From: a virus
IMG/VR virus record: IMGVR_UViG_3300023082_000027
Location: 1-33,283 of that record
Reading direction: 5' to 3' (one strand)
Length of the DNA: 33,283 nt
In this document: positions 9,968 to 32,041 of the stretch, piece by piece
How positions within the stretch are numbered: the stretch's first letter is position 1
Layout: every line of letters starts with the position of its first letter
Position numbers and translations under genes: made by a program
Notes under the pieces: generated by a model
Database searches by the model: none
What the model was told of the DNA's origin: nothing
Seen by the model: the letters and a program-made list of their open reading frames with translations, nothing else

Positions 9968-10178
9968 CAACCTCGACTTCGCCACGGAACTTGCTCAGCG
10001 CGAGCGGGACCACGCGGCGACGATCCGCAAGCCTGTGTTGGTGCGGACCGGAAAGTGTAAAGCCTGCGAAGCTCCCTTGGAAGCCTCGCAGGCTTTGTTC
10101 TGCGACAAGGACTGTGAGCAGGACTACTTGCGTTTGCGCCGCTCACTGACCATAGCGGGTCGCGCTATCCCTGGTTGA
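9957..10178 (+). CDS. Small zinc-finger protein
   Basis: A 73-residue protein with a GTG start that overlaps the end of the Rz-like gene. After a short charged helix it carries a four-cysteine motif, CKAC then FCDKDC (C-x2-C and C-x3-C), followed by YLRLRRS. The pattern suggests a small zinc ribbon. Such proteins are common near phage lysis cassettes but their role is unknown to me. It is the last plus-strand gene and its end overlaps the end of the convergent minus-strand gene by 14 bases. Confidence 0.65.
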   Translation: MSSDNLDFATELAQRERDHAATIRKPVLVRTGKCKACEAPLEASQALFCDKDCEQDYLRLRRSLTIAGRAIPG

Positions 10179-10668
10179 CGTAGCCTCGCCCGGGTTCCGC
10201 GCCCGTGGCAGGGTCGGTCACCAGTCGGCGCTGCACCGGGATCACCTCCATGCCCTGCGCCTCCTGAATCAAACCGTCGATCAGGTCCATGGCGAACTGG
10301 AGGCGGCTGGCGTCCTCATACCAGGTGTCCATCAGCTCGCACACCATGCCCTCGTTGGCCGTCAGGCCGTTCGTCTCCGCGTAGGCGTACATGTCGACGC
10401 GCGGCCACGCCAGCAGGCAGACGTTGTTGGCGACGCTGTGGACGTGGGTTTCCACGCCGTGAGCGGCCACCACCTCGATCAGCTTCTGGAGGAAGTGCTT
10501 GGCCTTGTTCAAGTCCTCCAGTCCATTCTTCTTGCGCCAGCGGGTGACGTACTTGGACACTTGGCCCTCGAAGTAGCCCAGGCCGTTCGCGGCGACCATG
10601 TCCCAGTGCTGGATGGCCACGCCCTTGTAGTGCTTGCCACCGACTTGTGTTTCATTCGCCAAAGACAT
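10165..10668 (-). CDS. DUF3310-like phage protein
   Basis: A 167-residue protein. The N-terminal 65 residues contain QVGGKHYKGVAIQHWD, then GYFEGQVSKYVTRWRKKNG and LEDLNKAKHFLQKLIE, the hallmark sequence of the DUF3310 family, which is common in phage DNA-metabolism regions. The C-terminal 100 residues are a helical extension without a known motif. Its biochemical role is unsettled, although some relatives are annotated as nucleotide kinases. It is the last gene of the minus-strand operon and overlaps the HD-domain gene by 17 bases, which ties it to nucleotide metabolism by context. Confidence 0.75.
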   Translation of the reverse strand: MSLANETQVGGKHYKGVAIQHWDMVAANGLGYFEGQVSKYVTRWRKKNGLEDLNKAKHFLQKLIEVVAAHGVETHVHSVANNVCLLAWPRVDMYAYAETNGLTANEGMVCELMDTWYEDASRLQFAMDLIDGLIQEAQGMEVIPVQRRLVTDPATGAEPGRGYVNQG

Positions 10669-11227
10669 TTGTGTACTCGCTTCTCAGTTGGTTGTAAATT
10701 GCCGCGCTCACGGGAGTGTGATCGACGGCTTCCAGCCAGCAGAGGTAGTTGAAGAACCCCTCCTGGATGTCGCGGTTGCCCCGGCGCAACTCGAAGGCGG
10801 CGAACATCGCACCCTCCAGCATGTCGCACATCTTGAGCAGTTTCGTTTCAGCCGGCGTGAGCTCAGGAATGACCAAGCCAAGTTCCGCCATGAAGGCGTC
10901 CTCCAGCTCGTCAAACCTCCCCTTCACGCCCGCCAACTTCTTCGTCGGCCCCGGCACGTCGCCGAACTTGCGCTCAGCGGTGTCGTGCATCAGGGCGGCG
11001 ACCAGCAGATTGCGAGACGCCATCGAGTCCAGCAGCAGGATCAGCTGCATGACGCTGTAGGTGTGCTCGCCCACGCTCTGGATGTGTAGTGTGGGCTCCG
11101 TGTGCCAGCGCTTCGTTCGTGCCGACGATTCCAGGTAGCGCAGCAGCCTGAGCTGCCCCCGGCTGAGGGCCGACCCATCGTGGTTGACGAAGGCCGGCGC
11201 CACGCGCATGTCGATGCCGGTGCTCAC
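10652..11227 (-). CDS. HD-domain nucleotide phosphohydrolase, YfbR-like
   Basis: A 191-residue protein. The GTG at 11227 overlaps the stop of the thymidylate-synthase-like gene (GTGA), which is preferred to the upstream in-frame start lying inside that gene. HD metal ligands are visible as His55 (SVGEHTYSV), His81-Asp82 (ALMHDTAERKFGDVPGP) and Asp135 (KMCDMLEGA), and Arg40-Trp41 match the RW pair of YfbR. The YfbR family removes 5'-phosphate from deoxynucleoside monophosphates. In this operon an attractive inference is destruction of dTMP, so that host thymidylate does not compete with the modified precursor. Confidence 0.78.
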   Translation of the reverse strand: MSTGIDMRVAPAFVNHDGSALSRGQLRLLRYLESSARTKRWHTEPTLHIQSVGEHTYSVMQLILLLDSMASRNLLVAALMHDTAERKFGDVPGPTKKLAGVKGRFDELEDAFMAELGLVIPELTPAETKLLKMCDMLEGAMFAAFELRRGNRDIQEGFFNYLCWLEAVDHTPVSAAIYNQLRSEYTNVFGE

Positions 11228-12324
11228 TTCGCTGCTGCCTTGGCCGCGCGAGCCTTGCCACGGTTGTCGAACCAGGTCTGGCACGCCCACACCCAGTCCT
11301 GCGCCGCGATCTCAGGGCAGTCCTCCCAGAGCGTCTGGATGTCGTCGCCGGCCTTGTAGCGCGCGTGAAGGCGCATCATCGGCACCGCCACCTCGCTGAA
11401 GAAGGGCAGGGTGAAGTCGTTGGACTCGCCCAGCGGGTCGGTCACGAAGGCTTCGCACTGGCGCAGCCACTCCAGCGGGTCATCGATGTGGCTGATGATC
11501 GGGTACGGCGACACCTCGATGTCGTACACGCTGTCATCGACAATCTTGACGGACCAGCCATCCCGGCTGTGGGTGCTGGTGTCGATCAAGCGCTGGACAT
11601 CCGGCCGGTCGATGTAGGCGTGGTAGTTGTTGCTGAACTGGTGGTACACGCCCAGCGGCATGCGGATCGCGCCGGCCACGAACTCGTGGAGCATCGACAT
11701 GTGGACCACGTTGGCCCCGTAGGCGCCCCAGACGACATCGTTGGAGCGGTTCAGGACCGTCATGTCCAGGTGTCCCCGGGTGCCGTCGAAGTAAATCTGC
11801 GTGTTGCAGGGCACGTCCTTCGCCGTCTTGCCGCCGATGCCCGCCACTCCGGGGATCATGTCGCCAACCGGCCCCCACATCGTGACCACGGCGCGGCGCG
11901 TCTTCGGGTCGGAGCGGAGCTGGTCGATGACCTCCAGCAGCTGGTCGAAGCCGAAGTGCTTGCGCCAGCGGTAGCCGTAGGCGCCCCACTGGAGGCCATC
12001 GTCAGCAAAGGCTTCCATCTGCTTGGCGAAGTTGGACACCATGGCGACTTCGTTGCGGCCGGCCAGCATCCACAGCGACTCGAACAGGTGGAAGAAGGGG
12101 TTGGCGTCGCGCTTGGCGTTCATGATGACGCGCTGGCGCGGGTGGCTGTAGGTCGTAATGACGGGAGCCGGGGCCACGAGCACGCGGCCGTTGCGGCTGT
12201 CGTTGATCTCGCCGGCCACCTTCAGCCAGTAAAGGCCGTCCACCAGCGCCTGGTCGGGGCTGTTGGCGACGATCACACGGGGCGCGCGGAAAGCCGGCCC
12301 CAGGTTTGCTTGTGCTTGGTTCAT
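11224..12324 (-). CDS. Thymidylate-synthase-fold enzyme, probable dUMP hydroxymethylase
   Basis: A 366-residue protein with the thymidylate synthase fold: RDANPFFHLFESLWMLAGR, the catalytic loop DVPCNTQIYF, LNRSNDVVWGAYGANVVHMS and SNNYHAY. The catalytic Cys, the Arg and Asp of the RSxD motif, and the HxY near the end of the core are all present. Asn replaces the His that follows the catalytic Cys in classical synthases. An Asn is kept at the position that selects the uracil ring, arguing for dUMP rather than dCMP as substrate. In a 5-hmdU hypermodification operon the likely reaction is hydroxymethylation of dUMP using methylene-tetrahydrofolate, but ordinary dTMP synthesis cannot be excluded by sequence alone. 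Confidence 0.82.
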   Translation of the reverse strand: MNQAQANLGPAFRAPRVIVANSPDQALVDGLYWLKVAGEINDSRNGRVLVAPAPVITTYSHPRQRVIMNAKRDANPFFHLFESLWMLAGRNEVAMVSNFAKQMEAFADDGLQWGAYGYRWRKHFGFDQLLEVIDQLRSDPKTRRAVVTMWGPVGDMIPGVAGIGGKTAKDVPCNTQIYFDGTRGHLDMTVLNRSNDVVWGAYGANVVHMSMLHEFVAGAIRMPLGVYHQFSNNYHAYIDRPDVQRLIDTSTHSRDGWSVKIVDDSVYDIEVSPYPIISHIDDPLEWLRQCEAFVTDPLGESNDFTLPFFSEVAVPMMRLHARYKAGDDIQTLWEDCPEIAAQDWVWACQTWFDNRGKARAAKAAAK

Positions 12325-12339
12325 GAGTGACAGGGTCTT

Positions 12340-12822
12340 TCAGCGGAGGGAGGGGTGGAGGAACGTGGACAGGTCAGCGGCCTTCCAGCCGGCCGGCTTC
12401 AGCACCTTGCCGGTGTCGGGGTCGCGGTGGAACGTGCCGTCAGGGAACTTCTTGGCCCAGTTGGCCAGCGCCACGCCGTGGTTGTAGGCGCCGTGGAGGT
12501 CGGAGCCCATGGCCGCGCTCGCGCCAATGGTGACCCAGAGCAGGTCAGCGTCGCCGTCCAGAAGCTCTTCAGCCATGTCGGGGTCTTCCATCGCGGCCTT
12601 GACGTGCGCGTCGGTGTCGCTGTCGCCGGCCTTCATGGCGTTGCCCAGGCCGATGAGGCGCACGGTCAGGTCGTTCTTGCCGAACACGGCCACCAGCTTC
12701 TCGGCCAGCTCCTCGCACTGCATGCCCATGTAGAAGGTCAGCTGGCGCACGTTGGGTTCTGCGCCGTGTGGAATCTGTTGCGTCTCTGCGAACCAGTCGC
12801 GGGTCTGTTTGATTTCGCTCAT
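12340..12822 (-). CDS. MazG-like nucleotide pyrophosphohydrolase
   Basis: A 160-residue all-alpha protein. I chose the ATG that overlaps the upstream stop (ATGA). The metal-binding signature is EE-x2-E at residues 37-41 (MQCEELAEKL) and E-x2-D-x3-D at about 86-93 (EELLDGDADLLW). The C-terminal segment (ANWAKKFPDGTFHRD, then KVLKPAGWKAADL) is typical of phage MazG-like proteins. The family converts dNTPs to dNMPs plus pyrophosphate. Placed next to the hydroxymethylase, it could supply dUMP from dUTP or remove dTTP. The substrate is not readable from sequence. Confidence 0.78.
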   Translation of the reverse strand: MSEIKQTRDWFAETQQIPHGAEPNVRQLTFYMGMQCEELAEKLVAVFGKNDLTVRLIGLGNAMKAGDSDTDAHVKAAMEDPDMAEELLDGDADLLWVTIGASAAMGSDLHGAYNHGVALANWAKKFPDGTFHRDPDTGKVLKPAGWKAADLSTFLHPSLR

Positions 12823-13676
12823 TTGTCGATGCTCCGTTGCTTGGGTTGGTACTTGCTCCGGGACGTACCCCGGCGCCACTTGCTGTACTCACAGAGGCAG
12901 TTCTGTAAGTCCTGACCCGTGATCGGGCCAAGGGTCTTGAGGTACGGTGCCACCTCGTTTTGGAACACTGCGAAGGCAGCGCGCCACGTTTGCTCAGTCC
13001 ACTTCGCGTCTGGGTGGCCGGCTTCGACCCAGCTCAGCCCCTTCATCGAGCCGGGGCCGGAGGTCGCCCACGTCATGAAGTCAGGCGCTTGGCCCAGCGG
13101 GCCGTCAGCGTACTTCGTGTCTGCGACCACTTGGCCGGCCATGAAGCTCCCCATGTCACGGCACTTGACCAGCCGCTTGTGGAAGGCGTCCAGGGTGTCG
13201 CCCTCCTTCGGGCGAAGCTCTTTGCGGGCGTCCCACATGGGCTGAAGGACGCGCTCAGCCAGATACGCCGCCTTGGTACCGCCGTGGTGAGCGTCCGCGT
13301 GGATCATGTAGGCGCCAGTGAACACCTTCTCCCCGCGCTCACGCCGTCCATCCATCGCAGCGACGAAGCGCCCAGACATCCACGGCACCGGGTAGCCAAT
13401 CTCGGCCAGAGACGGCCACCAGTTCACGAGGCGGGCCACGACCATGGCGAACCACACGTCAGGCTCGCGCGAGTGCGGAGCCAGCCAGTGTTCGTGGATG
13501 AGACGTGACTCACGGTCGTCGTTGCGCCGCACGTTACAGAAGCGGTACGTGGCCAGCACCGGGTCTTTGGTCCATGGCGGTACGTGACCGGCCTCCTTGC
13601 GCACGCGGATGCGCTCGCGCTCCAGGACGAAGCGGGCGAACAGCTTGAGCTCAGCGGCCTTGAAGCGGTTGGTCAT
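12819..13676 (-). CDS. 5-hmdU DNA kinase-type helical domain protein (hypermodification)
   Basis: A 285-residue helical protein. The N-terminal third contains LERERIRVRKEAG, then PPWTKDPVLATYRFCNVRR (residues 33-51) and WFAMVVARLVNWWP, matching what I recall as the 5-hmdU DNA kinase helical-domain family (first described as thymine pyrophosphorylase clade 1). This family co-occurs with P-loop 5-hmdU kinases in phages with hypermodified thymidine. The C-terminal part has KWRRGTSRSKYQPKQ and is basic, as expected of a DNA-acting protein. It is locked into the operon by ATGA overlaps on both sides. The exact catalytic contribution is unclear. Confidence 0.78.
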   Translation of the reverse strand: MTNRFKAAELKLFARFVLERERIRVRKEAGHVPPWTKDPVLATYRFCNVRRNDDRESRLIHEHWLAPHSREPDVWFAMVVARLVNWWPSLAEIGYPVPWMSGRFVAAMDGRRERGEKVFTGAYMIHADAHHGGTKAAYLAERVLQPMWDARKELRPKEGDTLDAFHKRLVKCRDMGSFMAGQVVADTKYADGPLGQAPDFMTWATSGPGSMKGLSWVEAGHPDAKWTEQTWRAAFAVFQNEVAPYLKTLGPITGQDLQNCLCEYSKWRRGTSRSKYQPKQRSIDK

Positions 13677-13960
13677 GCGGGCCTCCCTTCGGAGCGCGGC
13701 AGGACGACCGGACCGCTGTCACGCACGCCCTTCGACCGGATCGAGGCTACGCCGTTCGTGTGAACGTCGCTGGGGCGCCAGGTGTAGCCGCACTGACCGC
13801 AGAGGTGCGAGCGGTGGGGCGGGTTGGTCCACGGCTGCTCGTTGCGAGCCAGCTTCTCCAGCACCGTTTCTTCGCCGTCAGGCGCGTCGATGTGCTGGAC
13901 GCCGCAGCACGGGCAGAACAGGATGATGTCGACAACGATGTTGCCAAGATCGCGGAACAT
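13673..13960 (-). CDS. Small zinc-ribbon phage protein
   Basis: A 95-residue protein. The ATG at 13960 is preferred because it shares bases with the kinase stop (TGATG); the longer open frame to the right is inside the kinase gene. Two cysteine pairs form a zinc ribbon: FCPCCGVQHIDAP and HLCGQCGYTWRPSDV, joined by PWTNPPHRSH. This compact pattern recurs in many phages of Proteobacteria, but no function is established that I know of. Its position between two DNA-modification genes makes a DNA-binding accessory role possible. Confidence 0.72.
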   Translation of the reverse strand: MFRDLGNIVVDIILFCPCCGVQHIDAPDGEETVLEKLARNEQPWTNPPHRSHLCGQCGYTWRPSDVHTNGVASIRSKGVRDSGPVVLPRSEGRPA

Positions 13961-14556
13961 CAGATTGGCTCCTTCATCAGCTTGACGCCGAACAGCTTGA
14001 ACACGTCCTTGGCCGGGGTGAGGTGGCTGATCACCGCCGTCTTGCGGGGGCCGATGGTGCCGACCATCCCCATGTCCAGCTTGCGGCGCAGGCGGTCGAT
14101 GGTGTCCCACTTGGCGTTGACGTTCGTGAAGTCAATCAGCGGGTCGGCGCCACGGACGGCGCGGCGGGTGTTTACGCGCTGGCGGCACTTCTCCACCGGG
14201 GTGTCCATGAACGCCCAGATGAAGTCGTTGCCGAAGCGTTCCGACTGCGCGCCGATGTGACCGAAGGTCGTGGACAGCAACGCGCCCTCGAACAGCACGT
14301 GGCTGAAGCGCTCCAGACCGAATTCGACCAGCGGCCAGATGCGCGCGAAGGGCTGAACGGCGTCGCAGCCACCACACGCAGTTTCGTAGGGGCCGACGAT
14401 GAACAGCTGCTCCTTGTTGGGGAGCAGAGTGGTGTAGCCAATCGGCTTCTTCTGGCCGTCTTGCATGACCCGCTCTGCGCCGTACTTGGCCATGACGCGG
14501 GTGACGGTCGTGCTCTTGCCAGAACCGTGGGTGCCGTTGAGGCGAACGATTGTCAT
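13960..14556 (-). CDS. P-loop kinase, probable 5-hydroxymethyl-dU DNA kinase
   Basis: A 198-residue P-loop kinase. The Walker A motif GTHGSGKST spans residues 8-16. HVLFEGALLS lies at the Walker B position and a basic lid-like segment (CRQRVNTRRAVRG) follows. The start has GGAGAAG upstream and overlaps the previous stop. In phages with thymidine hypermodification, P-loop kinases phosphorylate 5-hydroxymethyluracil within DNA to create the leaving group for amino-acid transfer. The co-operonic transferase, helical kinase-type protein and hydroxymethylase strongly support this assignment. A nucleotide monophosphate kinase acting on hm-dUMP is the main alternative. Confidence 0.8.
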   Translation of the reverse strand: MTIVRLNGTHGSGKSTTVTRVMAKYGAERVMQDGQKKPIGYTTLLPNKEQLFIVGPYETACGGCDAVQPFARIWPLVEFGLERFSHVLFEGALLSTTFGHIGAQSERFGNDFIWAFMDTPVEKCRQRVNTRRAVRGADPLIDFTNVNAKWDTIDRLRRKLDMGMVGTIGPRKTAVISHLTPAKDVFKLFGVKLMKEPI

Positions 14557-14759
14557 TTGGCTTCTCCAATCTTGTTGGGCATGTTGTAATACGCCTTGGA
14601 GTCGGTCGCCGGGATGACGACTTGGACGCACTCGGCGGAGGTCGCCCCGCGCTTGACGAAGACGGCGCGGGCACGCTCGCAGCTGGCCATGTCGGCCATC
14701 GGCGGCACCGGGTTGAGCGTGCCCAGCCCGTAGTACACGAGTATGTAGACAACGATCAT
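14553..14759 (-). CDS. Small unknown protein with hydrophobic N-terminus
   Basis: A 68-residue protein with ATGA overlaps at both ends. It starts with a short hydrophobic stretch (MIVVYILVYYGLG, with no charge) that could be a membrane anchor. A soluble part contains two cysteines, MASCERARAVFVKRG and TSAECVQVVIP. I recognise no family. Tight coupling to the flavin enzyme and the kinase suggests it is translated in fixed ratio with them. Confidence 0.55.
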   Translation of the reverse strand: MIVVYILVYYGLGTLNPVPPMADMASCERARAVFVKRGATSAECVQVVIPATDSKAYYNMPNKIGEAK

Positions 14760-14977
14760 GGCTTGCGTAGCTCCACGAAGGGTTGGAGGGCTTCGGCGAA
14801 GGCTTCGGCGTTGGTGATGAGGGACTCCGTGATGGCATCCATCTCATAGTCGTTGACTGACATACCGTGAACCAGATCGCGGACAGCACCCTGGATGCTG
14901 GCGAGGTAGGCTTGCTGCTTCGCCTTGAGGCGCACCAGCTCAGCCACTTCGGCTTCGGTGAGGCGTTCAGCGGCCAT
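14756..14977 (-). CDS. Small helical unknown protein
   Basis: A 73-residue protein that is almost entirely helical: LTEAEVAELVRLKAKQQAYL, then a second helix around DAITESLITNAEAFAEALQP. The ATG start overlaps the flavin-enzyme gene by 11 bases and its stop overlaps the next start. It has no cysteine motif, no membrane segment and no family I recognise. By position it may be a small subunit or adaptor in the modification pathway. Confidence 0.55.
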   Translation of the reverse strand: MAAERLTEAEVAELVRLKAKQQAYLASIQGAVRDLVHGMSVNDYEMDAITESLITNAEAFAEALQPFVELRKP

Positions 14978-15806
14978 TGAGCTGACGCACGAAGCGCTCC
15001 GCTTGCCACGCCGCCAACACGGTGCCGTTCTTGGCTCCTCCGGTGCTGACCCACGTGTTGGGGTGGACCTTCTCGAAGAAGCCGGCCTTGTGCCCTTCGA
15101 CGTAGGGGCGCGCGCCCACGAACACCTTCTTGCCCGCCACTGGGAGCCCGAACAGGTCCACGGCGCGGCCCAGGGTCGTCTCGATGCGCTGCGCCGACTC
15201 CTTGCGCCACGTCTGCTCGATCAGCGCGGTGCCGTCGCCCATCCACACCTCCTTCTTGGTCATGTTGAAGGCGACCGCTTGACGGTACGGGGCATACACG
15301 CTGATCCGGGGCTCAGCGAGCTGCGCGCGGACGCGGACTGAAGCACCCCACAGGCCACGGATCGTCGGCATGGTAGCGAGTGAACCTGACCACACGCCGG
15401 CTGCGATCAGCACCTTACCCTTGAGGCGGTCCGGCTTGAAGTCGGGCGAAGTCTCCACGTCCACCCAGCCGTTGCCGACCGCCACCACCTTGCCAACGAT
15501 GTCGGCGGGCACCAGGATGTCGGCGGGGTCTACCCGGGACGCCTTGAAGCTCTTGATCATGTTGGTCTGGAACACCACCGGGTGGACGGTGTAGAGCTGG
15601 GCAAGGACGGCCATGGCCGCTTCGGCCGTGTCCTTGCCCAGTGAGCTCAGCCACGAAGGAGCCAGCACACACCCGGAGGCGAGGCTGGCTGCGTTGGCTT
15701 CGTTGTTGCTCACTACGGTGACGGAGTGGCCGTGCGCCCGCGCGAGGGTGGCGGCAATCGAGCCGAACAGCCCGTTGCCGACGATGATGACGTTGTGCTT
15801 AGCCAC
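14967..15806 (-). CDS. FAD-dependent DAO-family enzyme, predicted aminoacyl-thymidine trimming enzyme
   Basis: A 279-residue flavoprotein starting at GTG behind GAAAGG and overlapping the transferase gene by 8 bases. The dinucleotide-binding motif GNGLFG (G10-x-G12-x2-G15) is followed by a strand ending VTVVSN. KVLIAAGVWSG and the C-terminal TGGAKNGTVLAAW match the D-amino-acid/glycine oxidase fold. It is shorter than typical members (about 370), so peripheral elements are missing. In characterised thymidine hypermodification pathways, flavin enzymes convert a glycine attached to the thymine methyl into an aminomethyl group. The neighbouring transferase makes this the most likely role. The exact chemistry is an inference. 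Confidence 0.8.
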   Translation of the reverse strand: MAKHNVIIVGNGLFGSIAATLARAHGHSVTVVSNNEANAASLASGCVLAPSWLSSLGKDTAEAAMAVLAQLYTVHPVVFQTNMIKSFKASRVDPADILVPADIVGKVVAVGNGWVDVETSPDFKPDRLKGKVLIAAGVWSGSLATMPTIRGLWGASVRVRAQLAEPRISVYAPYRQAVAFNMTKKEVWMGDGTALIEQTWRKESAQRIETTLGRAVDLFGLPVAGKKVFVGARPYVEGHKAGFFEKVHPNTWVSTGGAKNGTVLAAWQAERFVRQLNGR

Positions 15807-16695
15807 TGATGCCTTTCGAGAGTTGTTGGGCCAGGTCGCCCCAGCCCTTGAGCCCGTGAACGATCTCACGGGTGTCCTTGCCCACCGGGTAGTGACCCTT
15901 GATGTGGGACTTGTACTTGCAGAAAATCGTCTCAATCTCCTGGATGTTGAGGGCGCGCTTCAGACCCGGCAGGGAGCCGACCTTGTGGCGCTTGTTGAAG
16001 GTCTTGATGTAGTAGGCGACGCTCTGGCTGATCTCCTCCGGCACAACGGGGTACGTCCAAGGCTTCGCCTCATACGCGGCGCGCTCGCCAGCGTCCAGGA
16101 TGCCGCCGGAGCCCATCCACTCCAGATAACCGACCGCTGCGCCTTGTGTCGGGTCTTTGTACATGTTCAGCGAGCAGTTGTCGAAGTTGACGCCGTAGCC
16201 CAGCACGCGCTCCGCCATGTCCGCGATCTTGAACGACATCCACGGACCGAAGCCCGGGTGAGACTCCACGTTGCGGGCCACGCTGGCAAACGACAAGTTG
16301 TCGCGCTCCGCTTGATGCGCGCCGGTCATGCCTTCGACGGCCGCAGAGGCTGTCTTGTACTTGACTCTGAGGTAGGCCATGGGGCCGGTCGCGTTCGCAG
16401 CGCGGAAGTGGCGACGCTCTGCGCCCCGGGGCCAAGGCTTCGTCGCCTGCGGAGGCGCCTTGGGGTGGGCCACCTCGTTGACTGCGGCCTGCGTCATCAG
16501 CTCCCAGAACTTCTTGGGGGTAGTGCCGCGCTCCGCGATGAAGGACGCGGTGCCCAGAGAGTAGAAGCACCAGTAAGCCAGGCACAGGCGGTCCAGGGTG
16601 GCCGAATCGAGCGAGGCGGAATTCATGGCGAGGTAGACCGGGTCAAGGTCGCCGCTCTTGAGCAGCTTGTCGCCAAACGTGATGATGGTTTCCAT
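15799..16695 (-). CDS. Amino acid:DNA transferase (alpha-glutamyl/putrescinyl-thymine pyrophosphorylase type)
   Basis: A 298-residue helical protein with GGAG 8 bases before the ATG. Signature segments are LCLAYWCFYSLGTASFIAE (residues 37-55), WPRGAERRHFR (88-98) and HPGFGPWMSFKIADM (146-160), which I recognise as the clade of amino acid:DNA transferases. These enzymes displace the activated phosphate on 5-hydroxymethyl-dU in DNA with the amine of an amino acid. It is the first gene of the modification operon, directly followed by the flavin enzyme. The amino acid used cannot be read from sequence; glycine is favoured by the flavin partner. Confidence 0.82.
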   Translation of the reverse strand: METIITFGDKLLKSGDLDPVYLAMNSASLDSATLDRLCLAYWCFYSLGTASFIAERGTTPKKFWELMTQAAVNEVAHPKAPPQATKPWPRGAERRHFRAANATGPMAYLRVKYKTASAAVEGMTGAHQAERDNLSFASVARNVESHPGFGPWMSFKIADMAERVLGYGVNFDNCSLNMYKDPTQGAAVGYLEWMGSGGILDAGERAAYEAKPWTYPVVPEEISQSVAYYIKTFNKRHKVGSLPGLKRALNIQEIETIFCKYKSHIKGHYPVGKDTREIVHGLKGWGDLAQQLSKGISG

Positions 16696-16762: not shown

Positions 16763-17686
16763 TTAGACCGGAACGAAGATTTCCCAGTACACGCAGTCAG
16801 CCACCTTCACACGGGCCTTGCCGGGGTCGCGGCCCAGCGACACCATCTTGTCAGCGATCTGCTGGCGGGTGAAGGTCTTCATCTTCACGGCTTCTTCGAC
16901 ATAGGCGGCAGTCTCGCCACGGCGTGCGGCGGTCGCGTCGGCCACCTTCAGCTTTTCGTCGTTGGCAGCGCGGACCGGGGGAGCCTTGGCGCTGGTGGCT
17001 GCGTTCTTGGCCGGCGGCTTCGCGCCCGACACCACGGTGGCGATGCCGTTCTTGGCAGGCGTCTTGGCAGCTGCGTTCTTGGCCGGAGCCGTCTTGGCAG
17101 CGGGGGTCTTCGCGGCCGGGGTCTTCGCAGCGGGCTTGTTCGGCGCGGCCACGGGCGTCTTGCTGATGGTGCCCTTGCCGGCAGGTGCGCCGGATGCTGC
17201 GGCGGTCTTCTTTGCGGGAGCGGTTTTTGCGGTAGCCATTTCGATGTCCTTGGTAGGTTGAGGAAGTTTGGGAGTGAGATTGTATACCGTCAAAGGGTCT
17301 TTGACGATAGCCTTCAGGTGATCCCGCACCTTGGGGTCGATTTCCCGATACTTGCCGGCTTCGAGGTAGACCTCAGCAGCGCGGCGAACGGGGTATTCTG
17401 AGAATTCTTCCCAGTCCGCGCGGAACTCGCGCAGGTGGGCTTTCTCCAGGGCCATCGAGGCCATGGGGATGAAGTAGGCGTGCGTGTCGTCGGTCTTGAC
17501 ACGGATGCACGAATAGGACTGGCCGATGCGGCGGCAGACGGCGGCTGGCAGCGTCTCCAGCTCCTTCGCGTCCCGGGCCTCCTTGGCCAGTCGGGCGTTG
17601 CGGGCGTCCACGGACTCCGTGAGCTTGATCTTGGTGACGGCGGGGGCGACCTTCTTGGCCGCGACCTTCTTGGCCGGCGCCTTCAC
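16763..17686 (-). CDS. Conserved N-terminal domain fused to Lys/Ala/Pro-rich histone H1-like tail
   Basis: A 307-residue protein with a GTG start that overlaps the previous stop (GTGA). Residues 1-25 are Lys/Ala-rich. Residues 26-140 form a charged domain with VCRRIGQSYSCIRVKTDDTH and EFRADWEEFSEYPVRRAAE. Residues 155-240 are low complexity, with repeats of the kind PAAKT and PAKN, resembling AlgP or histone H1 tails. The last 60 residues contain MKTFTRQQIADKMVSLGRD. An internal ATG at 17239 sits behind AAGGA and could start a separate 158-residue product covering the tail. A nucleic-acid-binding role is inferred from the charge. Confidence 0.6.
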   Translation of the reverse strand: MKAPAKKVAAKKVAPAVTKIKLTESVDARNARLAKEARDAKELETLPAAVCRRIGQSYSCIRVKTDDTHAYFIPMASMALEKAHLREFRADWEEFSEYPVRRAAEVYLEAGKYREIDPKVRDHLKAIVKDPLTVYNLTPKLPQPTKDIEMATAKTAPAKKTAAASGAPAGKGTISKTPVAAPNKPAAKTPAAKTPAAKTAPAKNAAAKTPAKNGIATVVSGAKPPAKNAATSAKAPPVRAANDEKLKVADATAARRGETAAYVEEAVKMKTFTRQQIADKMVSLGRDPGKARVKVADCVYWEIFVPV

Positions 17687-19654: not shown

Positions 19655-19868
19655 CGTATCCTCTGTGTAGCAGTTGGGCGTGCCGGAGCACTTGGTGTGG
19701 GTCGGGCTTCTCGCCCGGGGCTTTGAATTCTATGAGCAGTGGCGTGACTGGAATCCAGAATATCTGGTCAGGGTCGCCGCCCTGCCCCAGCTTGCTGGAC
19801 TCCACGCCGTACAGCTTGAGTGCGCGCTCACACACCCAGCGTTCAATGGGGGCTTCTAAGCCGGGCAT
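19485..19868 (-). CDS. VRR-NUC domain nuclease
   Basis: A 127-residue protein. The ATG at 19868 overlaps the acetyltransferase end by 13 bases. The VRR-NUC core is seen as GGDPDQIFWIP (D32, D34), LLIEFKAPG (E47-x-K49), HQVLRHAQLLHRGYDVQV (Q59) and EEALAAVKAAL. The family is a PD-(D/E)XK nuclease found in phages and in FAN1. Residues beyond about 95 (KKSRQVLARSLF to the end) lie inside the helicase gene in another frame and look unconserved. It is commonly paired with a SNF2 helicase in phages, so a joint replication-repair role is likely. Confidence 0.78.
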   Translation of the reverse strand: MPGLEAPIERWVCERALKLYGVESSKLGQGGDPDQIFWIPVTPLLIEFKAPGEKPDPHQVLRHAQLLHRGYDVQVHDNREEALAAVKAALDAAPVPKKSRQVLARSLFSSVVSGSRARQDLHQRRRK

Positions 19869-20242
19869 CTGAGCACCATTTCGTGTTGGTAGTTCGTGCG
19901 GGCGTAGGGGACCGGCCTGAAGCCGTGACGCCTGTACAGCGCCTCCAGCTCCTGGATGGTCGGCCGGCGCACGGAATGATGGCCAGAGCGCTTCGGGCCG
20001 TAGGGGCTTGCATACAGCCACAGGTCGGCCCCTTCGCCTGCCGCGTAGGCCACGGCGGTTTCGATCAGGGTGTGGCTCCAGCCGAGCCCTCTGCGTAGCG
20101 GGTGGACGTACAGCTCAGTCAGGAACAGGAGCGGCACGCCCTTCCGCTGAACCGACCGGAGCACGGCGGGGTCGGTGACGGGGCGCACGGTGACTTCGCC
20201 AATGAAGCCCCCGGCGCCTACGGTCCAGCGGACTGGGTTCAC
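19856..20242 (-). CDS. GNAT-family N-acetyltransferase
   Basis: A 128-residue protein with a GTG start that overlaps the exonuclease stop (GTGA). The acetyl-CoA pocket motif is in FLTELYVHPLRRGLGWSHTL (R51-G-L-G54 region). GADLWLYASPYG and ELEALYRRHGFRPV are the usual later strand and helix. The substrate is unknown. In the PaMx11-type pathway an acetyltransferase caps the aminomethyl group on thymine, so this gene is a candidate for the same step even though it is about 3 kb from the modification operon. Acetylation of a protein or small molecule is an equal possibility. Confidence 0.75.
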   Translation of the reverse strand: MNPVRWTVGAGGFIGEVTVRPVTDPAVLRSVQRKGVPLLFLTELYVHPLRRGLGWSHTLIETAVAYAAGEGADLWLYASPYGPKRSGHHSVRRPTIQELEALYRRHGFRPVPYARTNYQHEMVLRCPA

Positions 20243-31408: not shown

Positions 31409-32041
31409 TCAGCGTTTGCGGCGACCGGGCGGAGGCGGAGGAGGCGGTGCCGGGGGTGGCGGGGTCACGGCCGGCTTCGCTGCTTGGCTCGTGCGGTCCT
31501 GGTTGTAGGCGCCCCGCTCTGCGTAGCTTCGCTCAGCCGGGACCGGCGCATGGCGGTGGAAGATCATCTGGCCGACCTTGTCACCCGCGTAGAGCGCCAG
31601 CACGTGCTGCTGCGTGATGTTGTGAAGTTCCAGGGTCAGCGCCGACCCGTGCCAGCCGGGGTCGCACCACACCGCCAGGGCGTGACTGAGGCCCATGCGC
31701 GCCACGCTGCTCTTCAGCCTGAACTCCGCGCTGAGGGTCAGCGGCAGGTTGAACGTCTCCAGCGTCTGCGCCAGGATGAACTGGCCGGGGTAGAGCAGGA
31801 AGGGCTCGGCGCCCTCCTCCGACCGATCCTGAAGCCGCACCTCATCGAAGGCCAACGACTCCCTGGCGCCCAGCTCCACCACCGGGTACGACAACTCCTC
31901 CGGTCGCTCGTGCTCGACAAGGATGGTGCCGCCCAGGCGAACGTCGATGCTGGACCCGTTGATGTTCGCGTCCGGCACGTTCGTCATCACGTTGCGCTGG
32001 ACGACTTCCAGGCGCAGTTCCTTGTAGCTGAGGAGGCTCAC
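31409..32041 (-). CDS. dcd: dCTP deaminase
   Basis: A 210-residue enzyme of the dUTPase/dCTP deaminase fold, with a GTG start overlapping the previous stop. Visible motifs are INGSSIDVRLGG, YPGQFILAQTLETFNLP, RLKSSVARMGL with S111 and R115, and HALAVWCDPGWHG followed by TLELHN with E138, positions that coincide with the catalytic Ser111, Arg115 and Glu138 of E. coli Dcd. It turns dCTP into dUTP, supplying dUMP for the hydroxymethylase in this genome. The C-terminus has an added polyproline tail and basic end. A bifunctional dCTP deaminase/dUTPase is possible but not shown. Confidence 0.85.
   Translation of the reverse strand: MSLLSYKELRLEVVQRNVMTNVPDANINGSSIDVRLGGTILVEHERPEELSYPVVELGARESLAFDEVRLQDRSEEGAEPFLLYPGQFILAQTLETFNLPLTLSAEFRLKSSVARMGLSHALAVWCDPGWHGSALTLELHNITQQHVLALYAGDKVGQMIFHRHAPVPAERSYAERGAYNQDRTSQAAKPAVTPPPPAPPPPPPPGRRKR

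What the first reader, a model, noticed from the sequence alone, without database searches (positions are those of the whole stretch)
14967..16695. Flavin enzyme directly coupled to the amino acid:DNA transferase: predicted aminomethyl-type thymine
The flavin gene overlaps the transferase gene by 8 bases and has a GxGxxG motif and a DAO-type C-terminus, but at 279 residues is about 90 shorter than typical DAO enzymes. In known pathways a flavin enzyme reduces an attached glycine to 5-aminomethyl-dU. No radical SAM enzyme or PLP decarboxylase is seen in the window, so a M6- or ViI-type end product is less likely unless those genes lie outside it.
Basis: partly seen in the sequence, partly recalled or inferred. 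Interest (0 to 1): 0.85.

Follow-up and report, generated by a model that had tools for sequence, protein, structure and literature searches.

The report
Phage enzymes making aminomethyl-thymine DNA
This uncultured phage carries a set of genes, already known from Pseudomonas phage PaMx11, that attaches glycine to a modified thymine in its DNA and then trims it with a flavin enzyme to leave an aminomethyl group; the one notable difference is that the gene that normally caps that amine is missing from the cluster.

Summary
In detail: a 279-aa flavin protein (14967-15806, minus strand, GTG start) overlaps an amino acid:DNA transferase (15799-16695) by 8 bp, inside a thymine-hypermodification operon. 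Its identity is firm. The flavin protein matches PDB 8z2o/8z79, the N-alpha-glycinylthymidine FAD-dependent lyase gp47 of Pseudomonas phage PaMx11, by sequence (E 6e-48) and by predicted structure (Z 34.8, 1.6 A over 265 residues). The transferase matches PDB 8z2m, a glycinyltransferase (E 4.5e-50). No radical SAM or PLP enzyme of the M6 pathway is present; across 73 distinct ADDT loci, flavin lyase and radical SAM/PLP never co-occur (37, 23, 0 both; Fisher p = 4e-10). Unlike PaMx11, the window has no acetyltransferase in the cluster. Its only GNAT lies 3.2 kb away, lacks the acetyltransferase motif, and occurs in relatives that also have the real one. Best prediction: 5-aminomethyl-dU, probably uncapped. 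New member of a known kind. Side finding outside the window: a glutamine-synthetase-fold amidoligase replaces the acetyltransferase in many related clusters.

The parts
15799..16695 (-). Amino acid:DNA transferase (ADDT), predicted glycinyltransferase
   Evidence: PF18724 E=1.5e-14; PDB 8z2m Glycinyltransferase E=4.5e-50; 36.6% to PaMx11 gp46 and 36.9% to M6 gp51
14967..15806 (-). FAD-dependent N-alpha-glycinylthymidine lyase, 279 aa, 8 bp overlap with ADDT
   Evidence: PDB 8z2o/8z79 E=6e-48; AlphaFold2 model pLDDT 93.7 matches 8z79 at Z 34.8, 1.6 A over 265 aa; PF01266
14756..14977 (-). 73-aa ORF in the place where PaMx11 has its acetyltransferase; not a GNAT
   Evidence: Only a sub-cut-off DUF896 hit, E=0.0084
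14553..14759 (-). 68-aa ORF, no family
   Evidence: No Pfam hit
13960..14556 (-). 5-hmdU DNA kinase (P-loop; GTHGSGKST), not a terminase despite the PHROG name
   Evidence: PF18748 HMUDK_HMUD1 E=1.4e-5, just under cut-off; 35.8% to PaMx11 gp49; alignment
13673..13960 (-). 95-aa CxxC protein between the kinase and its helical partner, where L015/L024/L026 have an acetyltransferase; not a GNAT
   Evidence: No significant Pfam hit
12819..13676 (-). 5-hmdU DNA kinase helical-domain protein (HMUDK_hel)
   Evidence: PF18723 E=1.7e-35
12340..12879 (-). MazG-like nucleotide pyrophosphohydrolase
   Evidence: phrog_671 E=4.3e-18
11224..12324 (-). Thymidylate-synthase homologue, predicted dUMP hydroxymethylase (catalytic Cys in PCN, as in PaMx11 and M6)
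   Evidence: PF00303 E=7.5e-16; 44% to the PaMx11 homologue; alignment
10652..11290 (-). HD/YfbR-like 5'-deoxynucleotidase
   Evidence: PF12917 E=3.2e-7
19856..20242 (-). Small GNAT-fold protein beside a VRR-NUC nuclease; judged not to be the capping acetyltransferase
   Evidence: PF13508 E=3.6e-6; co-occurs with a true AcT in L015/L016
31409..32041 (-). dCTP-deaminase-like protein, possible dUMP supply
   Evidence: phrog_1663 E=9.6e-42

Best explanation
This is a thymine-hypermodification pathway of the PaMx11 type. Inferred steps: a thymidylate-synthase homologue makes 5-hydroxymethyl-dUMP, which enters DNA; the split 5-hmdU DNA kinase (P-loop protein plus helical partner) phosphorylates the hydroxymethyl group; the ADDT displaces the phosphate with the amino group of glycine, giving N-alpha-glycinylthymidine; the flavin protein oxidises the glycine N-C(alpha) bond to an imine that hydrolyses (glyoxylate leaves), leaving 5-aminomethyl-dU (5-NmdU). 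With no acetyltransferase in the cluster, the likely final base is 5-NmdU with a free amine. Shown here: family membership, fold, operon, conserved residues, absence of alternative tailoring genes from the window. Inferred: substrates, chemistry, final product.
For: Sequence match of the flavin protein to the PaMx11 gp47 lyase, E 6e-48; predicted structure, Z 34.8 to 8z79 against 22-24 for ThiO-type glycine oxidases and CmiS2; transferase match to glycinyltransferase 8z2m; same gene set as PaMx11: ADDT, FAD, kinase, helical partner, TS, HD, DUF3310; conserved Arg233 aligns with the Arg of GLRP in glycine oxidase 7cyx; no radical SAM or PLP; exclusion of flavin lyase and radical SAM/PLP in 73 distinct loci, p = 4e-10; no PaMx11-type AcT in the window.
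Against: Only 37% identity to gp47, so substrate drift is possible. The record is a 33-kb linear fragment, so a capping gene could lie outside it. A GNAT is present at 19856-20242. The nearest flavin-protein relative (L015, 63% identical) carries an AcT between the kinase genes.
Confidence: 0.82

Rival explanations
1. Same pathway, but the amine is capped: the small GNAT at 19856-20242, or a gene outside the fragment, acylates 5-NmdU, giving 5-AcNmdU or a relative.
For: A GNAT is present in the window. PaMx11 and many relatives carry an AcT in the cluster, and the window's clade has AcT or another GNAT in some members. The window is incomplete.
Against: The window GNAT lacks the A(K/R)xSxYTKDF region conserved in the AcT family. 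It sits beside a nuclease gene 3.2 kb from the ADDT and is syntenic also in L015/L016, which have a true AcT as well. In the relatives mapped the recognised caps lie inside the modification cluster, and this cluster is complete in the window.
Confidence: 0.25
2. The flavin protein has changed substrate (another N-linked amino acid, or an opine- or sarcosine-like group), so the product is not 5-aminomethyl-dU.
For: Identity to the characterised enzyme is only 37%, and flavin-protein clade membership is distinct from the PaMx11 clade (tree supports 99/98).
Against: The DAO-type active-site residues invariant across both clades are all kept. The partner transferase is equally close to the PaMx11 and M6 enzymes. 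The 8-bp gene overlap argues for paired evolution.
Confidence: 0.1
3. M6- or ViI-type product (aminoethyl or aminoethoxymethyl) made with tailoring genes outside the window.
For: The record is a fragment, and the ADDT is as close to M6 gp51 (36.9%) as to PaMx11 gp46 (36.6%).
Against: No locus with a flavin lyase carries radical SAM or PLP genes (0 of 37; 0 of 60 clusters). In M6 the PLP and radical SAM genes directly follow the ADDT; here that place holds the flavin gene.
Confidence: 0.02

Closest known systems
Pseudomonas phage PaMx11 gp46-gp47 pathway (glycinyltransferase 8z2m/8z2n; N-alpha-GlyT FAD-dependent lyase 8z2o/8z79)
   Same: Same enzyme families, gene order ADDT-FAD-kinase-helical partner-TS-HD-DUF3310, start/stop overlap of ADDT and FAD genes, protein lengths and fold
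   Different: 36-44% protein identity; no acetyltransferase (gp48) between FAD and kinase; a MazG-like gene before TS; two small ORFs after FAD
Uncultured viral contigs L014, L020, L021, L025 (IMG/VR)
   Same: Flavin proteins 55-63% identical, same operon and upstream genes (SNF2, VRR-NUC, small GNAT, Lys/Ala-rich protein), no recognised cap in the cluster
   Different: Different small ORFs between FAD and the helical partner; L021 carries extra genes
Stenotrophomonas phage Sonora
   Same: ADDT, FAD, kinase, helical partner and TS with no acetyltransferase
   Different: 41% identical flavin protein on a long branch; carries an Nmad5 protein
Pseudomonas phage M6 (radical SAM / PLP branch)
   Same: ADDT, kinase pair, TS, HD protein
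   Different: Tailoring by PLP and radical SAM enzymes instead of a flavin lyase
ThiO glycine oxidase and MnmC oxidase domain
   Same: DAO fold and likely the same oxidative removal of a glycine-type carbon unit (Z about 23 to 1ng3)
   Different: NCBIfam ThiO score 35 against cut-off 251, MnmC 15 against 174; 80-90 aa longer; other substrates

Membership tests
N-alpha-glycinylthymidine FAD-dependent lyase (PaMx11 gp47 family) | Full-length sequence homology to gp47 | tested here: met
   E 6e-48 over residues 3-276
N-alpha-glycinylthymidine FAD-dependent lyase (PaMx11 gp47 family) | Same compact DAO fold as 8z2o/8z79 | tested here: met
   Model pLDDT 93.7; Z 34.8, 1.6 A, 265 aligned, about 10 Z units above the next fold
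N-alpha-glycinylthymidine FAD-dependent lyase (PaMx11 gp47 family) | FAD-binding GxGxxG and family-invariant residues | tested here: met
   30 invariant columns shared with gp47, including G10/G12/G15, D191, R233, K259
N-alpha-glycinylthymidine FAD-dependent lyase (PaMx11 gp47 family) | Adjacent ADDT and 5-hmdU DNA kinase genes, without radical SAM/PLP | tested here: met
N-alpha-glycinylthymidine FAD-dependent lyase (PaMx11 gp47 family) | Enzymatic conversion of N-alpha-GlyT DNA to 5-NmdU | not testable with these tools
   Needs assay
Amino acid:DNA transferase (PF18724) | Score above the curated cut-off | tested here: met
   54.7 bits against 26.2
Amino acid:DNA transferase (PF18724) | Uses glycine | not testable with these tools
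   Closest solved relatives include glycinyltransferase 8z2m; specificity inferred
PaMx11-type 5-acetylaminomethyl-dU pathway (complete) | GNAT acetyltransferase inside the modification cluster | tested here: not met
   No PaMx11-type AcT hit in the window; ORFs between FAD and helical partner are not GNATs. The whole genome cannot be tested: fragment
M6-type 5-NedU pathway | Radical SAM and PLP enzymes beside the ADDT | tested here: not met
   PF04055 absent; M6 gp52/gp53 give no hit
ThiO glycine oxidase (equivalog) | Score above the NCBIfam equivalog cut-off | tested here: not met
   35.1 against 250.8 bits

The most novel reading that the evidence does not exclude
This phage belongs to a lineage that leaves 5-aminomethyl-dU uncapped, so its genomic DNA carries free, positively charged primary amines on thymine, in contrast to the acetyl-capped base made by PaMx11-type clusters; the cap (acetyltransferase, other GNAT, amidoligase or none) is a swappable module on a fixed glycine-plus-lyase core.
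Probability: 0.55. Interest if true: 0.45.

Novelty: new member of a known kind. Interest (0 to 1): 0.36.

Why it matters
It extends the experimentally characterised PaMx11 glycine/flavin-lyase branch to a distinct clade of uncultured phages. It also gives a testable rule for reading the end product from gene content: flavin lyase and radical SAM/PLP are mutually exclusive branches, and acetyltransferase and amidoligase are mutually exclusive caps in the loci surveyed. A natural uncapped 5-NmdU genome would show whether the free amine alone protects against restriction and would be a source of DNA with addressable amines.

Tried and rejected
(1) The search for related loci with the single flavin protein found nothing; the 8-member alignment found 27 loci. 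(2) The GNAT at 19856-20242 as replacement acetyltransferase: rejected as unlikely, because it is syntenic in relatives that also carry an AcT and lacks the AcT motif. (3) The small ORFs 14756-14977, 14553-14759 and 13673-13960 as hidden caps: no GNAT or other enzyme match. (4) A shortened substrate domain as a special feature: rejected, since the relatives and 8z2o have the same length. (5) Reading the ORF at 12819-13676 as a second ADDT (my first guess from memory): wrong, it is HMUDK_hel. (6) The primary papers on the pathway (doi 10.1093/nar/gkab781, PMC11472151, PMC5889632) are not in the held library; their content is used only through PDB titles, the citation in PMC11946847 and my own knowledge, marked as such. 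(7) A genome-contig scan gave one locus with a PaMx11-like cluster including AcT in a gammaproteobacterial MAG: no host for the window.

Full report
WHAT IS THERE. The window is a 33,283-bp linear IMG/VR virus record, 64% GC. On the minus strand lies a nearly continuous operon running from a replication block to 10.2 kb. The finding's two genes are real: the ADDT gene 15799-16695 (298 aa) and the flavin gene 14967-15806 (279 aa, GTG start), overlapping by 8 bp. The GTG is preceded by GAAAGG, and codon-position GC is the same as in neighbouring genes.

IDENTITY OF THE PAIR. Pfam gives DAO (PF01266, 1e-12) for the flavin protein and ADDT (PF18724, 1.5e-14) for the transferase. Against all solved structures, the flavin protein matches only one family strongly: 8z2o and 8z79, 'Flavin-dependent lyase', E 6e-48. 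The transferase matches 8z2m 'Glycinyltransferase' (4.5e-50) and 25qc (2.3e-52). An AlphaFold2 model of the flavin protein from 20 relatives (pLDDT 93.7) superposes on 8z79, titled '5-N-alpha-glycinylthymidine FAD-dependent lyase gp47/NGTO from Pseudomonas phage PaMx11', with Z 34.8 and 1.6 A over 265 residues. The next folds, CmiS2 and ThiO-type glycine oxidases, score Z 22-24. NCBIfam equivalog cut-offs for ThiO and MnmC are not reached.

SURROUNDINGS. The window holds the full tool set: thymidylate-synthase homologue (11224-12324), MazG-like protein (12340-12879), 5-hmdU kinase helical protein (12819-13676), 5-hmdU kinase P-loop protein (13960-14556), HD/YfbR nucleotidase (10652-11290), DUF3310 (10165-10668) and a dCTP-deaminase-like protein (31409-32041). 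PaMx11 gp46-gp53 are all found in the same order by tblastn, at 32-44% identity, except gp48, the acetyltransferase, which gives no credible hit. M6's PLP and radical SAM enzymes give no hit either, and PF04055 is absent.

RELATIVES. Searching viral contigs with the flavin family gave 27 loci, 14 of them 49-63% identical at the best segment to the query family of the window. A tree puts the window protein in a clade of uncultured phages separate from the PaMx11 clade (99/98 support; the branching inside the clade is open). Searching with the ADDT family gave 80 further loci. Among distinct ADDT loci from that search with enough downstream sequence, 37 have the flavin lyase, 23 have PLP and/or radical SAM, none has both and 13 have neither (Fisher p = 4e-10). 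Over all 98 clusters the counts are 60, 23, 0 and 15 (this second set is enriched for flavin loci by the way they were fetched). The loci are related by descent, so the p-value overstates independence, but no exception was found (one radical SAM locus, L092, has a 42-bit DAO hit, below the threshold used).

THE CAP. In PaMx11 the 5-aminomethyl base is then acetylated (own knowledge of Lee et al., doi 10.1093/nar/gkab781, not held). Among 60 flavin clusters, 22 have a PaMx11-family acetyltransferase (between FAD and kinase, or between the two kinase genes), 3 have a different GNAT between ADDT and FAD, 16 have an amidoligase, and 19, plus the window, have no recognised cap in the cluster. In that last group L036/L037 carry yet another GNAT after FAD that the models did not count, so 'no recognised cap' is an upper bound. 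The window's three small ORFs in the two usual cap positions are not GNATs. Its only GNAT (19856-20242) lies beside a VRR-NUC nuclease, lacks the YTKDF region of the acetyltransferases, and has syntenic counterparts in L014, L020, L021 and L025 (no AcT) and in L015 and L016 (with AcT). It is therefore probably unrelated to capping.

MECHANISM. Shown: families, fold, conserved residues, operon, missing alternatives. From established knowledge: the TS homologue supplies 5-hmdUMP, the kinase makes 5-phosphomethyl-dU in DNA, ADDT installs glycine through its amino group, and gp47-type enzymes give 5-NmdU. Inferred here: the flavin protein removes the two-carbon unit by oxidation of the N-C(alpha) bond followed by hydrolysis, as glycine oxidase and the MnmC oxidase domain do. 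The invariant Arg233 aligns with the GLRP arginine of glycine oxidase.

NOVELTY. Both enzyme steps and their combination are known from PaMx11, including crystal structures. The window is a new, diverged member with a cap-less cluster, and cap-less clusters also exist in phage Sonora and other contigs. I therefore call it a new member of a known kind.

SIDE FINDING. The amidoligase in 16 flavin clusters and 4 radical SAM/PLP clusters has PF12224 motifs (best E 4.4e-6) and a predicted glutamine-synthetase/glutamate-cysteine-ligase fold (pLDDT 94.8; Z about 10 to YbdK, GshA and GS). It travels with a low-molecular-weight phosphatase and is fused to it in L056. It never co-occurs with the acetyltransferase (p = 0.006). 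Homologues sit beside 7-deazaguanine genes: a 7-cyano-7-deazaguanine reductase in Vibrio phage 2.275.O, and a QueE-like radical SAM protein in L046 (judged by eye from the sequence). The common factor is a base with a primary amine, so an ATP-dependent carboxylate-amine ligase capping the amine is a reasonable, untested hypothesis. I found no paper describing it in the held library, which does not show that it is unpublished.

Noticed in passing
L004:11477-12430, L038:4449-5357, L033:9131-10033 and most of L043-L073 (not in the window): A glutamine-synthetase-fold amidoligase with a low-molecular-weight phosphatase (fused in L056:5977-7341) takes the place of the acetyltransferase in 16 flavin-lyase clusters and occurs in 4 radical SAM/PLP clusters; it never co-occurs with the acetyltransferase. 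Possibly an unrecognised ATP-dependent cap on amine-bearing thymines.
   Followed up: partly
L153:5875-6987 (Vibrio phage 2.275.O) and L046:5998-6945: Amidoligase homologues beside 7-deazaguanine biosynthesis genes (7-cyano-7-deazaguanine reductase; QueE-like protein), that is, beside another pathway that can make an aminomethyl base.
   Followed up: partly
L019:6397-7002, L022:4883-5479, L027:317-871: A second kind of GNAT lies between ADDT and the flavin gene in three close relatives (PF00583, E 1e-6 to 2e-5), unlike the PaMx11-type acetyltransferase.
   Followed up: partly
window 16763-17686 (-): Lys/Ala/Pro-rich repeat protein just upstream of the ADDT, conserved in position in the window's clade; PaMx11 and Sonora have a DUF3489 protein in the same place.
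   Followed up: no
window 13960-14556 (-): The 5-hmdU DNA kinase falls in PHROG 800, named 'terminase small subunit', and is so annotated in PaMx11, Ab18 and M6; the name looks like a propagated misannotation.
   Followed up: partly
L021:9245-9949 and L019:8641-9294: Relatives carry further unrelated insertions between the kinase genes (a methyltransferase-like protein in L021, a DnaJ-like protein in L019, judged by eye from the sequences), showing that this is a hot spot for gene gain.
   Followed up: no
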